Shown here: positions 42,115-47,705 of the stretch, in pieces
How the letters are laid out: the number at the start of each line of letters is the position of its first letter
How positions within the stretch are numbered: position 1 is the stretch's first letter
Assembly (NCBI RefSeq): GCF_024170465.1
Contig: NZ_JALJYF010000002.1
Location: 496,001 to 560,000 of the forward strand
DNA from: Natronospira proteinivora
GTDB taxonomy: Bacteria > Pseudomonadota > Gammaproteobacteria > Natronospirales > Natronospiraceae
DNA length: 64,000 bases
Reading direction: 5' to 3'
Made by a program: the position numbers and the translations under genes
Notes under the pieces: model-generated
Database searches by the model: none
What the model was told of the DNA's origin: nothing
The model's input: the letters and a program-made list of their open reading frames with translations, nothing else

Positions 42115-42996
42115 TTAGGCGGCCATGTAGCCCCTGAGTTTCTTGATGGCGCTGTTCTCGATCTGGCGGATTCGTTCGGCGGAGACGCCGTACTCGTCGG
42201 CCAGATCATGCAAAGTGGTCTTGCCATCCTCGCTCATCCAGCGGGACTGGACGATGTGACGGGAACGCTCATCCAGGCGGCTTAAGGCCTGGCTCAGGCG
42301 GCGGCTGCCGGAGTCACTCCAGTCATCGGCCTCAACGGCTACGGCCGGGTCACTGCTGCTGTCAGGCAGGTAGTGGGCCGGAGCGTAGCTGCCCTCCTCA
42401 TCGTCATTGGCGCCGGGATAGGGGTCAAAGGCCACGTCATGGTGGGCCAGGCGGCCTTCCATTTCCATCACCTGTTCGCTGCTCACACCCAGATCCCGTG
42501 CCACGTTGTCTACTTCGTCCTTGCTGAACCAGCCCAGACGATGCTTGGCCTTGCGCAGGTTGAAAAAGAGCTTGCGCTGGGCCTTGGTGGTGGCGATTTT
42601 CACAATCCGCCAGTTGCGGATCACGTACTCGTGAATCTCGGCACGAATCCAGTGCACGGCGAAGGAAATCAGGCGGACGCCAACACTGGGGTCGAAGCGC
42701 TTGACCGCCTTCATCAGGCCCACATTGCCTTCCTGGATCAGGTCGGCAAAGGGCAGGCCGTAGCCCTGGTAACCCCGGGCCACATGGACCACGAAACGCA
42801 GATTGGAGAGGACCAGGGTGCGGGCCGCATCCAGGTCGCCTTCGTCGTGGTAACGCACGGCCAGGTCGTGCTCTTCATCTTCGGAGAGCACGGGGATGCT
42901 GCTCACGGCACTGAGATAGGCGTCCAGGCTGTTGGACGGACCGGCCAGCGCCAATGCGGCATTGTTTTTGAGGGTTAAAGCTTTCTTATCCGCCAT
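42115..42996 (-). CDS. rpoH: RNA polymerase sigma-32 factor RpoH
   Basis: This 293-residue heat-shock sigma factor directs RNA polymerase to chaperone and protease promoters. Region 2 contains [27 protein letters not shown] (read as [12 protein letters not shown]) and [20 protein letters not shown]. The RpoH box is [12 protein letters not shown], and region 4 has [20 protein letters not shown]. The ATG at 42996 follows GGAGG. The gene lies convergent to ftsEX in the classic ftsY-ftsE-ftsX-rpoH block. A CIRCE site covers its promoter, so HrcA probably represses it. Confidence 0.97.
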
Positions 42997-43039: not shown

Positions 43040-43069
43040 ATTCTAGCACTCACCGGGTTGGAGTGCTAA
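43040..43069 (-). promoter_or_regulatory. CIRCE (HrcA) operator over the rpoH promoter
   Basis: On the minus strand TTAGCACTC, nine bases, GAGTGCTAG matches the CIRCE consensus in 17 of 18 arm positions with the exact nine-base spacer (43043-43069). TTAGCA as -35 (43064-43069) and TAGAAT as -10 (43040-43045) lie 18 bases apart, so the operator spans the promoter. The predicted leader to the ATG is about 37 bases. Confidence 0.9.
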
Positions 43070-43109: not shown

Positions 43110-43270
43110 GGGCCGCTGGCCCGGGGGAATTCGAGGGCCTGGGCGGCTCTGGCGGCCGCTCGCGCCGGTATGGAGCGAGGTGCGTAGCCAAAGCTACGTG
43201 CCGAGTAAATACCAAGCGAGCGGTCGTCAGAGACGTCCAGGCGCCGAATCTCCCCCCGGGTCAGCGGCCC
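43110..43270 (+). other. 161-nt long hairpin, probable structured RNA or palindromic element
   Basis: Almost the entire stretch folds into one stem with a CAAA loop at 43189-43192. Paired segments include GGGCCGCTGG with TCAGCGGCCC, CCCGGGGG with CCCCCCGGG, the GCCTGG/CCAGGC region, CCGCTCGC with GCGAGCGG, GGTAT with ATACC, and GTGCGTAGC with GCTACGTGC. All six transition differences between the arms give G-U pairs in a plus-strand RNA and A-C mismatches in a minus-strand RNA. It lies between the terminator of protease 2 and the rpoH promoter. I see no clear promoter for it. Confidence 0.6.
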
Positions 43271-43271
43271 C

Positions 43272-43306
43272 AAAAAAAACCGCCCCCCGGCAAAGCCGGG
43301 GGGCGG
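43272..43306 (-). terminator. Strong intrinsic terminator, distal, for protease 2
   Basis: CCGCCCCCCGGC pairs with GCCGGGGGGCGG around AAA. On the minus strand it is followed by eight T. Confidence 0.93.
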
Positions 43307-43368: not shown

Positions 43369-46300
43369 TTACACACGGCGACGGGCCGCCAGACCCAGCA
43401 GTGCCAACAGGAACAGCGTCGGCATCAGCGGATCAATCGGTCCCTTGCCACTACCCATGGAGCAACTGAAGAAGCTGCTGCCACTGGGCCCACTTGGCTC
43501 AGCGACATCCTCATCTTCATCATCAACACAGGCAGCCGTGCTGACACTGAAGGCCTCGCTGGTGATATCCCCCGCCGAGGCGGCAATTTCGCCCTGGAAG
43601 TCGTAGGAGGCACCACACTCGAGTCCATCCACCACTTCCGTGTAGGTCTGGGGATAGAAGCTCGCCATCAGCTCGAAGCCTTCGGTCTGCTCACCATCAC
43701 CGTCGATGAAGTAGCCCGAGGGCGTTGCACCGAAGGTGTTGGCGGTCATGGTCAACTCGACCGATTCCTCATCAATGGCTTGACCATCGACACTCATCAG
43801 CTCGATCTCATCACCAAGACCTTCCAGCACCAGGCCACCGGCATCGATTACACCGGCAACCGCGCTGCCATCCCAGGTGGAGTACAGCTCAACGGTCCAT
43901 TCACCAGCGGCTTCTTCACCGGCGAACTCTTCCAGCAGCTCTTCCGCCGAATCGGTTCCGCCACCAGAGGCCCAACCCAGGTCATAGTCCAGCTCTTCAT
44001 CTGGATCTGCCCCGGTAGCACCGGCAGCACCGCCGATCAGAACTTCGGTTCCTTCCGGAGAAGTGAGATGCATACGGAACTCGTCCAGCCAGTCACCACC
44101 GGTAGCGGTATAGGTGATATCCAGCGTGGCACCTGCGGTCAGCGTACCGTCAATGCCATCCAGAGTGACCACAGTGGGATTACCGACACCACCGCTCACC
44201 TCAATACCAGCCAGGTTCAGCAGATTTGTGGTGCATGCACCGCGAGCATAGGAACGGTTGATGCCATGAGCCATACCCGTGATCTGGTTGGTGGCCCAGA
44301 TAGTACCATCACAGTCGATGGTGACATCCCGCACCGTATCCAGCAGTACACGCTCACCTGCTTCGTCGGCATAGACAATCTCATCAACGAAGGCATAGCC
44401 ATCGTTGAGGTCATGCACGAAGACATCGGCAGAGGTGTCCCGCTGATAGTCAGTGATGAAGATGCTGCCGGTAGCCGGATTGACGGCCAGGCCGCCAATG
44501 GCGTAACCGGTATCAACCGAGTTCAGCACTTCACCATCCAGGTTGACCTCGTAAATCCAGCCACCGCGGTCACCGAAGTACAGCAGCTCGCTGGATTGAT
44601 CGTAGGCAACCCCACGGAGACGGCCATCTTCCAGATCTTCCTGATCCAGGCAGATGGCGTTGCCGGTGGCTTCGCCTTCAGACGGATCCACTTCGTGCAG
44701 GCATTGATCACCACCCACATTCAGGTGCCAGAGCATGCCGCTTTCCGGATCGTAGGTCATACCTGCGGTCCAGTCACCGTCATCACCATCCGCATAGGGC
44801 TTGGTGGAGATGCTGCTCTCGGTGGGCGAACCATCGAAGTTGAAGCCGTGGATGTGATCGCTACCTTGATAAAGCTCGCGATCGGCCACCCAGACATTAC
44901 CACCACGCAGGGTGTGGGCAATGCCATAGCTACCCATCAGACCAGTATCGAAGCTGGCATCCACCAGATCCACACTGTCATCCGGCTCCGCCGCAATGGG
45001 CATGGCCATATCCGGGCCACCATTGTGGTCGGTGATCATCACACGACCAAAGTTGGTCGGCCCTTCACCCACCAGGCCGGCGCCGGCCATGGTCACGGTG
45101 ATTGCAGCCTGCTGTCCGGCCTCAAGGGTCAGTTCAGCGGGTTCAACGGAGACTTCCACATCACCCTGAACAGTCATCCCTTCAAAGCTGTAGGTCCCGG
45201 CACGGGTCGCCTTGAACGTACGGGTCCAGGAACAGCTGGCCAGACAATCCCGATTGGCCATACTGGCCAGGTTCAGCGTCCGGATGTTGCCGAACTCATG
45301 GGGATCGTTACCGATCATGTTGGCAATGCTTTCATCCAGTACCAGACCGGCATCAACGGCAGCGCCAACCCGGGCTTCGCCCGCACCCTGGTCATACCAG
45401 TCATAGCCTTCCAGGGCATAAGCGGTCAGCATCAGCGCCGACTTGACTTCCATCGGAGTCCAGTCCGGACGGCCAGCCATCACCAGCGCGGCGGCACCGG
45501 CCACATGCGGGCTGGACATGGATGTGCCACCAATGGCGTCGTACTCATCCACATCCTCGGTAGCACCCGCATAAGCGGCGAGAATACCCTGACCCGGCGC
45601 GGAAATGTCCGGCTTCAGGAGATCCGCCAATACGGGATCGGAGGTAATCGGCCCGCGGGAACTGAAGTTCGCCATTTGGCCACCGAACGCCTCGTCCACT
45701 TCTTCTGAGATGGAGGCCAGTCCGATGGAACCCGGCAGCGTGTCGCCATCCAGAGCTTCAATCAGTTCAGCACGGTCCGTGCTCAAGATATGAGCAGCCG
45801 GCAGTGGCGCACGCATATCAAGCAGTGTTTCGTCACCATCATCGTCGATAAAATAGATGGCGTCGGTGTTGGCATAGAGAACACCACCACCACCTGCCTC
45901 AAACACGTTGGCCAAGGCAGCATTCATCAGAGAGCCACCGAAAAGATCCGTACCGAGGTCGCAGAGGACGATTTCACCATCGAACTCATCCGGTGCGAAA
46001 ACCTGCCCCCCAAGAAGGGTGTCGGCACAAAATGCACCGTCATTCACACCGACATCGCCACCATAGATGATGTCTTCCTCGTAAGCACTGGTAAAGCCGG
46101 CACCGACGAGGTTGACTTCCTCACCTTCAGGGCCATAAGTCACATCCACCATGGATTCCAGCACCCGGTCATGGGTGTTGGCGGCCACGGAGCTGACCCA
46201 GGGCGCGGCCTTGGAGACGGTCCCTGCACCGGGGCCATCGTTGCCCGCGGATGCGGCCACGAAGATACCGGCATGGGTAGCACCTGCCCAGGCATCACTC

Positions 46301-47475
46301 ACCGGATCCGCATCTTCATCCCAGGGGTTGTTGGCGCCACTGATGGAGAAGTTGAGGATATCAACACCATCTTCGATGGACTGCTCTACAGCAGCCACCG
46401 AATCAGCAACCGGACAACCCGGTGCGCAAACGCGATAATTGACCAGGTTGGCTCTCGGCGCCACACCGGTCACGTTCCGCTCATAGGGCTCGTCAGTGCC
46501 GGCTTCCGGCAGCACATCGAAGGGCTCGTAGAACGGAATCATGGTGGCAACGGTCGGGTTACCCGCGGCCGTGCTGGCGACGTGACTACCATGGCCGTTC
46601 ACGTCAAAGCCGCCTTCACCAGCATAGTCGTAGGCGCCGATCAGCTTGCTGTTACAGGGATAGTCCGGGTTGTAATCCGCACTGGAGGGATCACAGACCC
46701 CAAGGTAAACCCCCTCGCCCATCGGGTTGACATGCTGATAACCATCGGGAGATTCAGCATCAAAGGAAGTGTGGAAGGGATTGATACCACTATCGATGAT
46801 ACCAATAACCACGCCTTCGCCACGGTTAGCTACTGCGGCGTCGTCATTATCCCAAACGCCATCGGCCCCAATACGGCCAGGACCCTGATCGGTATCCATC
46901 TCACGCACTTCGTCCGGTGTCACATAGCGAACACCGTCCATGCGATTGAGCTTCATGGCTTCATTGGGCGTGACCGTAATGGCCATGCCGTTCATGGCGC
47001 GAATGTATTGATGATCGACTTTGACATCGCGGCGAAGCTCATTACGCAGGGTGGACAGGAACTCGTCCTGCTGGCCCATCAGGTAATTGCTATATGCCTG
47101 AACGGCACTACCCTGGGTCTGCAAACGACTTTCGCCGGTCACTGCAGGGCTGGTGGCTTCAAAACCCTCAATTCCACCGGTATAGAGGGAAACGGCGGGA
47201 TCATCGAAGGCAACGATGAAACGCATCATTTCATCGCCCTGGTTCTGGACAAGCTCACGCAGACCCGGGTTCGGATCCTGACCCCGTTCGGCGGCGCGCA
47301 GCTTTTCATCGCTGAGACGAGGACTTACCAGCTCCCCATCAACGTTGTAGCCGATGCCGCCCTTGTATTCCGAAACCGGAATTGTGGTCGGTCCACTGGC
47401 GGTGGCAGTCGCCATGGCAACCCCCACAGCCAGACCGACCCCGGTCGCGACTGATAGTATTGGCCTCAATTTCAT
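43369..47475 (-). CDS. Giant secreted S8 serine protease 2
   Basis: This 1368-residue exported subtilase starts at the ATG at 47475, which has GGAG six bases upstream, with signal peptide ILSVATGVGLAVGVAMATATA. A propeptide covers about 75-190. The triad is Asp228 (GIIDSGI), His295 (GHGSHVAS) and Ser652 (GGTSMSSPHVAG), with a PA-like insert between about 440 and 590. Downstream come an Ig-like domain, a propeller-like region with MLWHLNVGGDQCLHEV and LYFGDRGGWIYEVN repeats, a P/homoB-like domain (LDYDLGWASGG and WTVELYSTW) and a short Ig-like segment. It is shorter than proteases 1 and 3 because the CHB_HEX-like and regulatory-like domains are absent. The C-terminus is SCSMGSGKGPIDPLMP, a hydrophobic segment and RRRV. 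Confidence 0.93.
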   Translation of the reverse strand: MKLRPILSVATGVGLAVGVAMATATASGPTTIPVSEYKGGIGYNVDGELVSPRLSDEKLRAAERGQDPNPGLRELVQNQGDEMMRFIVAFDDPAVSLYTGGIEGFEATSPAVTGESRLQTQGSAVQAYSNYLMGQQDEFLSTLRNELRRDVKVDHQYIRAMNGMAITVTPNEAMKLNRMDGVRYVTPDEVREMDTDQGPGRIGADGVWDNDDAAVANRGEGVVIGIIDSGINPFHTSFDAESPDGYQHVNPMGEGVYLGVCDPSSADYNPDYPCNSKLIGAYDYAGEGGFDVNGHGSHVASTAAGNPTVATMIPFYEPFDVLPEAGTDEPYERNVTGVAPRANLVNYRVCAPGCPVADSVAAVEQSIEDGVDILNFSISGANNPWDEDADPVSDAWAGATHAGIFVAASAGNDGPGAGTVSKAAPWVSSVAANTHDRVLESMVDVTYGPEGEEVNLVGAGFTSAYEEDIIYGGDVGVNDGAFCADTLLGGQVFAPDEFDGEIVLCDLGTDLFGGSLMNAALANVFEAGGGGVLYANTDAIYFIDDDGDETLLDMRAPLPAAHILSTDRAELIEALDGDTLPGSIGLASISEEVDEAFGGQMANFSSRGPITSDPVLADLLKPDISAPGQGILAAYAGATEDVDEYDAIGGTSMSSPHVAGAAALVMAGRPDWTPMEVKSALMLTAYALEGYDWYDQGAGEARVGAAVDAGLVLDESIANMIGNDPHEFGNIRTLNLASMANRDCLASCSWTRTFKATRAGTYSFEGMTVQGDVEVSVEPAELTLEAGQQAAITVTMAGAGLVGEGPTNFGRVMITDHNGGPDMAMPIAAEPDDSVDLVDASFDTGLMGSYGIAHTLRGGNVWVADRELYQGSDHIHGFNFDGSPTESSISTKPYADGDDGDWTAGMTYDPESGMLWHLNVGGDQCLHEVDPSEGEATGNAICLDQEDLEDGRLRGVAYDQSSELLYFGDRGGWIYEVNLDGEVLNSVDTGYAIGGLAVNPATGSIFITDYQRDTSADVFVHDLNDGYAFVDEIVYADEAGERVLLDTVRDVTIDCDGTIWATNQITGMAHGINRSYARGACTTNLLNLAGIEVSGGVGNPTVVTLDGIDGTLTAGATLDITYTATGGDWLDEFRMHLTSPEGTEVLIGGAAGATGADPDEELDYDLGWASGGGTDSAEELLEEFAGEEAAGEWTVELYSTWDGSAVAGVIDAGGLVLEGLGDEIELMSVDGQAIDEESVELTMTANTFGATPSGYFIDGDGEQTEGFELMASFYPQTYTEVVDGLECGASYDFQGEIAASAGDITSEAFSVSTAACVDDEDEDVAEPSGPSGSSFFSCSMGSGKGPIDPLMPTLFLLALLGLAARRRV

Positions 47476-47705
47476 AACAAGCTCCATTGCTGTTTTACAT
47501 TCACTCCTTTCGAGGACCCCCCCCAAACAGCGGGCCAAGTCCGCGAAAGTTTCCGTTGCCTTGCCTGGCAATTACAAAGCCCTTTCGGGCTCCTTATCCG
47601 ACGAAGAGACGTCCCCCATCAAGTCGCCCCCCACGCCGGACCATTCCTAAGTCAAGTACACGATCCTGCTTTTTTCAAGAAAGGACGTGTCCTTAAATTC
47701 TGAAT

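What the first reader, a model, noticed from the sequence alone, without database searches (positions are those of the whole stretch)
43110..43270. 161-nt near-continuous hairpin with plus-strand-biased wobble pairs upstream of rpoH
The stem runs almost without break from 43110 to 43270 around a CAAA loop. All six transition differences between the arms become G-U pairs if the plus strand is transcribed and A-C mismatches otherwise, the pattern expected of selection on a plus-strand RNA. It resembles ERIC-like palindromes in size, or an independent structured RNA antisense to the 3' end of the protease 2 transcript.
Basis: partly seen in the sequence, partly recalled or inferred. Interest (0 to 1): 0.68.

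Follow-up and report, generated by a model that had tools for sequence, protein, structure and literature searches.

The report
Copy of a mobile RNA-hairpin repeat
The hairpin beside rpoH is one copy of a previously unlisted, patchily spread repeat element of Gammaproteobacteria whose long hairpin has been kept, base pair by base pair, in a form that folds best when one strand is read out; this points to an RNA (or single-strand) function of a mobile repeat and not to a regulator of its neighbours.

Summary
43110-43270 folds into a 67-pair hairpin (-136 kcal/mol, z -13) with seven G-U pairs on the plus strand. It is not specific to this locus. The same structure occurs in several dispersed copies in this genome, in two related Natronospira-genus genomes, and in about 6% of sampled gammaproteobacterial genomes (23 of 369, 18 families, 1 to at least 12 copies each), with no Rfam, plasmid, phage or viral-contig match. 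Stem sequences change almost freely while pairing, three internal loops and a GA/GA motif stay: 24 of 32 pairs show two-sided changes in 27 copies. The wobble bias holds family-wide (106 G-T against 12 A-C in 32 copies; 123 against 46 in 59 further copies). Outside Natronospira the hairpin sits in 245-289-bp elements with YTAR ends and terminal repeats like those of an IS1380-family transposon, so these are MITE-like. The window copy lacks those ends; the orthologous site in two sister genomes is empty. Verdict: an ERIC-like mobile palindrome by kind, but a distinct family with a conserved, strand-specific fold. The antisense-to-protease idea is not supported. Function is inferred; no expression data exist here.

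The parts
43110..43270 (+). whole hairpin element (this copy)
   Evidence: 67-pair fold; sister genome lacks it at the same place
43147..43232 (+). conserved structured core (covariance model R2)
   Evidence: R2 hit 80.7 bits, E 3.9e-17, the only one in the window; covariation
43164..43166 (+). 5' side of conserved internal loop GCC (opposite AA 43214-43215)
   Evidence: invariant or nearly so in A2 and A4
43172..43178 (+). 5' side of purine loop region GGA-GC-GA (opposite GA-GU-AA 43203-43208)
   Evidence: TGGA..GA / GA..GAA invariant in most copies, (these letters were part of the pattern)
43189..43192 (+). apical loop CAAA (AGC-like in most relatives)
43272..43306 (-). intrinsic terminator of the subtilase gene (stem 43280-43306, T8 43272-43279 on the minus strand); the hairpin lies just beyond it
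   Evidence: A-run and GC hairpin also present without the element in L176
43043..43069 (-). CIRCE-like operator overlapping the rpoH promoter (neighbour, not part of the element)
42115..42996 (-). rpoH (sigma-32-like), neighbour
   Evidence: ORF, Pfam Sigma70_r2/r4
43369..47571 (-). subtilase (S8) gene, neighbour (ORF limits; the true start may be further in)
   Evidence: Pfam

Best explanation
A copy of a dispersed, non-autonomous mobile repeat (MITE-like) whose conserved part is a long hairpin. SHOWN: several copies per genome at unrelated intergenic sites; an orthologous empty site; fold and internal loops conserved by compensatory change across many families of Gammaproteobacteria; strand-biased wobble pairs; outside Natronospira, YTAR-flanked terminal inverted repeats like those of an intact IS1380-family transposon. 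INFERRED: outside Natronospira an IS1380-type transposase moved the element in trans; in Natronospira the same hairpin spread with other ends, often landing just beyond intrinsic terminators; the plus strand is at least sometimes transcribed, and the hairpin then acts in cis as a stable RNA element (blocking, processing or protecting the transcript, or binding a host protein through its purine-rich internal loops). At this locus it is an insertion in the spacer between the subtilase terminator and the rpoH promoter, with no evidence that it regulates either gene.
For: Copies: own genome, 952364-952534 at 76% identity plus a truncated neighbour; three Natronospira-genus genomes; none in 16 others of the order; 22 contigs, all gammaproteobacterial; 23 of 369 genomes. 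Fold: 19 of 46 pairs with two-sided change in 6 copies, 0/500 shuffles; 24 of 32 pairs, 215 cells against 71 in shuffles; sliding the partner drops pairing from 94.8% to at most 42%; 85 distinct copies, 29 of 32 pairs. At one locus occupied in two species (maeA-dtd): 9 pairs changed on both sides, 2 on one side, none broken, no change at 14 loop positions. Wobble. Empty site. Element ends: (flanking tetranucleotides identical on both sides in 30 of 40 elements with TA on both sides). Intact IS with the same kind of end: L243, 516-aa ORF, PF13701 hit, CTAG at both ends and long matching terminal repeats. No family in Rfam 15.
Against: The window copy has no YTAR/CCCGCAT ends (one search finds only chance-level matches elsewhere) and its genome has no PF13701 transposase, so how the Natronospira form moved is unknown. 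No transcript data. G-T pairs are also tolerated in single-stranded DNA, so RNA is not proved. The internal fold is far better conserved than a plain MITE requires.
Confidence: 0.78

Rival explanations
1. The conserved fold is used as single-stranded DNA, not RNA: a plus-strand DNA hairpin formed during replication or transposition is recognised by a recombinase or transposase (as in REPIN/IS200-type or attC-type systems).
For: Fold and terminal repeats pair end to end in one strand; G-T pairs are tolerated in DNA; several hairpin families share one set of ends; the REPIN paper PMC3116915 describes ssDNA hairpins with compensatory changes.
Against: Ends match a DDE (IS1380-family) transposon with target-repeat-like flanks, which is not expected to need a strand-specific fold. 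Y1 transposase genes in carrier genomes are not flanked by these ends or by the hairpin (one degraded Y1 match in G282 merely shares a contig with a copy), and three of the 13 carriers searched have no Y1 match.
Confidence: 0.25
2. Independent regulatory RNA or antisense RNA of this locus, acting on the protease 2 transcript or rpoH.
For: Strong plus-strand fold; position between rpoH and the subtilase gene.
Against: Beyond the protease terminator and with no plus-strand promoter-like site; absent at the orthologous place in G001 and G002; copies sit beside unrelated genes such as maeA, a DUF4124 gene and a GGDEF/EAL gene.
Confidence: 0.05
3. Passive palindrome: arms stay alike by template-switch correction of quasi-palindromes during replication, without selection for a fold.
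For: Many pairs change on both sides with few one-sided changes, as arm-to-arm copying would give.
Against: Correction acts on both strands alike and would erase internal loops; here GCC/AA, GGA/GA and GA/GA persist and wobble is strand-biased 106 to 12.
Confidence: 0.08
4. Part of a transcription terminator or insulator maintained for this gene pair.
For: Right end abuts an A-run and GC hairpin at four independent Natronospira loci; strong stem.
Against: The A-run and GC hairpin exist without the long hairpin in G001; no T-run follows the long stem on the plus strand; elsewhere the elements are not next to such terminators.
Confidence: 0.07

Closest known systems
Bacterial MITEs with RNA-folding palindromes (ERIC/RU-1, NEMIS/Correia, bcr1, RUP, QMITE2)
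   Same: 100-300 bp, non-coding, intergenic, multi-copy, terminal inverted repeats (outside Natronospira), strong hairpin when transcribed (PMC10969869, PMC3733652).
   Different: No sequence match to ERIC primers; inner fold with fixed non-canonical loops conserved across about 18 families with covariation; clear strand bias; core found with different sets of ends.
IS1380-family insertion sequences (PF13701) and their MITEs
   Same: YTAR flanks and CCCG.AT.. ends as in the intact IS of L243.
   Different: The IS itself does not contain the hairpin core (R2 found none); carriers examined mostly lack an intact IS with these ends; the window copy lacks the ends.
REPs/REPINs mobilised by RAYT (GTAG-tagged repeats)
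   Same: Dispersed hairpins with compensatory changes (PMC3116915); GTAG REPs and a RAYT coexist in this genome.
   Different: Much longer; no GTAG foot; not flanking the RAYT gene.
Integron attC sites
   Same: Structure conserved over sequence, strand-specific fold (from general knowledge).
   Different: No cassette or integrase context seen; ends are YTAR-type transposon ends. Box motifs were not searched systematically.

Membership tests
ERIC | ERIC consensus sequence (two primer-site blocks) | tested here: not met
   0 matches with up to 3 mismatches, (primer sequences from general knowledge)
MITE (kind) | short, non-coding, dispersed multi-copy element | tested here: met
MITE (kind) | insertion shown by an empty orthologous site | tested here: met
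   L176 (G001) keeps A-run and terminator without the hairpin; L177 (G002) also lacks it, (between species, not strains)
MITE (kind) | terminal inverted repeats and target repeats | tested here: inconclusive
   met in elements of other lineages; not found for the window copy, whose stem itself is the only inverted repeat
IS1380-family MITE | ends shared with an IS1380-family transposon | tested here: not met
   window copy: no such ends and no PF13701 gene in G000; met for the relatives outside Natronospira
REP/REPIN | GTAG foot and RAYT association | tested here: not met
Any Rfam RNA family | score above gathering threshold | tested here: not met
   low-threshold
Transcribed structured RNA | expression of the plus strand | not testable with these tools
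   no RNA-seq available

The most novel reading that the evidence does not exclude
The hairpin is an undescribed class of mobile structured RNA: the fold itself is what is selected as the element spreads, either because a host or transposon protein binds the plus-strand RNA to promote its own spread or because the RNA acts in trans, and several unrelated hairpin families have adopted the same IS1380-type ends.
Probability: 0.15. Interest if true: 0.82.

Novelty: new variant of a known kind. Interest (0 to 1): 0.56.

Why it matters
Bacterial MITE hairpins are usually seen as by-products of inverted ends. Here the inner fold outlives the sequence over many bacterial families, with one strand clearly favoured, which makes the question 'are MITE hairpins selected as RNA?' directly testable. 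It also gives a covariance model that annotates an unlabelled repeat in about 6% of sampled gammaproteobacterial genomes and prevents such copies being mistaken for regulatory RNAs of neighbouring genes.

Tried and rejected
Rfam at gathering and relaxed thresholds: no family; low-threshold hits are unrelated. Plasmids and phages by blastn and viral contigs by pattern: nothing. First test for an IS1380 parent inside carrier genomes failed: fragments with other ends; a wider class search found intact or broken IS with the right ends. Search for long autonomous elements among TIR positions: only short elements. Y1/RAYT transposases as partners: not flanked by the element. R2 core inside IS1380 elements: none. 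ERIC sequence: none. Literature searches for the end sequence gave no paper. Whether YTAR is a 4-bp target duplication or part of palindromic ends could not be settled (both direct and inverted agreement, because CTAG and TTAA are palindromic).

Full report
THE OBSERVATION. The stretch 43110-43270 folds as a single hairpin: 67 pairs, loop CAAA, -136.1 kcal/mol on the plus strand with z -13.2, against -110.9 and z -7.8 on the minus strand. All seven wobble pairs are G-U on the plus strand, and the best of 300 random windows reaches only -101 kcal/mol. The breaks in the stem are few: GCC/AA, GGA/AA, GA/GA and small mismatches lower down.

COPIES. A DNA search of the own genome gave a second copy at C2:952364-952534 (76% identity) with a truncated neighbour. 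The sister genomes G001 and G002 gave one and four copies. A covariance model from six copies (R1) found further diverged copies in these three genomes and none in 16 other genomes of the order, including copies whose stems share almost no sequence (L080, L082).

FOLD CONSERVATION. In six copies 19 of 46 pairs show changes on both sides with pairing kept; no shuffle reaches this and sliding the partner abolishes it. A pattern built from the invariant loop letters found 22 contigs in the GTDB collection, all gammaproteobacterial: Woeseiaceae, Lysobacterales, Thioalkalivibrio sulfidiphilus and unnamed MAGs. In 27 copies aligned almost without gaps, 94.8% of cells pair, 24 of 32 pairs show two-sided change, and 215 cells carry it against 71 in shuffles. 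With 85 distinct copies the figures are 92%, 29 of 32 and 665 against 205 (that alignment was fitted to the model). Letters fixed by the pattern cannot serve as evidence of conservation, but the N positions can, and they show the covariation.

STRAND BIAS. Over 34 pairs in 32 pattern-found copies there are 106 G-T and 12 A-C oppositions; 30 copies lean to G-T, none to A-C. In 59 further model-found copies it is 123 to 46, 42 copies against 15; the exceptions cluster in a few lineages (such as G113, G170, G259) whose lower stems fit the model poorly. The model mildly favours G-U, so the first figure is the cleaner one. A mutational bias alone would have to be about ninefold and would not give paired two-sided changes.

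SAME-LOCUS COMPARISON. At the maeA-dtd spacer both G000 and G001 carry the element. There 9 pairs changed on both sides, 2 on one side, none was lost, and none of 14 loop positions changed. If this is one old insertion, the fold was maintained in place; replacement by a second insertion cannot be excluded. At a Lysobacterales locus (L097/L111) the structure is decaying instead (2 both, 3 one-sided, 4 lost or gained).

ELEMENT ANATOMY OUTSIDE NATRONOSPIRA. Copies are 245-289 bp (a few longer through internal insertions), begin and end with YTAR (mostly CTAG or TTAA) followed by about 20 nt of terminal inverted repeat such as CCCGCATATTGCACCAG, then the hairpin, then a spacer with ACAAACTGT-like sequence. 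The ends vary between genomes but left and right vary together. Flanking tetranucleotides are identical in 30 of 40 elements with TA on both sides. Other short elements with the same ends contain different long hairpins (L181-L197).

A LIKELY PARENT. An intact 1.77-kb IS in G182 (L243) has CTAG at both ends, long matching terminal repeats starting CTAGCCCGCTTTTCTCAC, and a 516-aa ORF that matches PF13701, the Pfam family of IS1380-type transposases. Broken relatives with ends such as CTAGCCCGCATATCTCACC lie in G065 and G148. That YTAR is the target of this IS family was not checked in the literature; it is read from the ends. No copy of the hairpin core lies inside these IS.

THE WINDOW LOCUS. 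In G001 the spacer upstream of rpoH has the CIRCE element, then the A-run and GC hairpin of the protease terminator, and no long hairpin; in G002 it is absent too. The window copy therefore looks like an insertion next to a pre-existing terminator. Three other independent Natronospira loci also have an A-run and GC hairpin at the right end of the element. No YTAR-type ends surround the window copy and no PF13701 gene is in its genome, so the Natronospira form is related through the core, and its mode of movement is unknown.

GENE CONTEXT. With a simple home-made gene caller, the gene downstream of the element lies on the opposite strand, its 3' end facing the element, in 50 of 70 cases; between two genes of one direction the element is antisense 29 times and sense 14 times. 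The window is of the antisense type. One reading is that a strong plus-strand hairpin is selected against inside mRNAs. This is suggestive only.

DISTRIBUTION. A model-based survey found the core in 23 of 369 gammaproteobacterial genomes from 18 families. The scan scored at most 12 candidates per genome, so copy numbers are minima. There was no match in viral contigs, plasmids or phages.

CONCLUSION. The finding is real and general. It is best filed as a new variant of bacterial MITE-like palindromic repeats, with an unusually conserved and strand-specific inner fold. RNA-level function is the most economical reading of the wobble bias, but it is inferred. Regulation of rpoH or the protease is unlikely.

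Noticed in passing
window 43043-43069: CIRCE-like operator (TTAGCACTC-N9-GAGTGCTAG on the minus strand) overlapping the rpoH promoter; conserved upstream of rpoH in G001, G002, G003, G005 and G007, suggesting HrcA control of the heat-shock sigma factor in this order.
   Followed up: partly
window, at least 12 copies (e.g. 2273, 15180, 35467): GTAG-tagged REP repeats GTAGGAGCGGATTTATCCGCGAT, with a RAYT-type Y1 transposase flanked by the same REPs at G000:C2:423060.
   Followed up: partly
L084, L085, L086, L089 and L074, L087, L088: Two further classes of long hairpins with conserved apical parts and unrelated stems in Natronospira genomes, found weakly by R1; one lies close to the SRP RNA gene.
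   Followed up: partly
L181-L184, L187, L192-L194; L191, L196, L197: Two other short element families with the same CCCGCATATCTCACC ends but different long hairpins; in each the more stable strand is the same in all copies seen. L183 itself holds the family described here.
   Followed up: no
L243 1241-3011: Intact IS1380-family insertion sequence with CTAG ends, candidate source of the ends of these elements.
   Followed up: partly
right ends of several elements, e.g. L123: The YTAR at the element end supplies the stop codon of the neighbouring gene, and in L123 the next gene's ATG follows directly, so elements can sit at stop/start junctions without breaking genes.
   Followed up: partly
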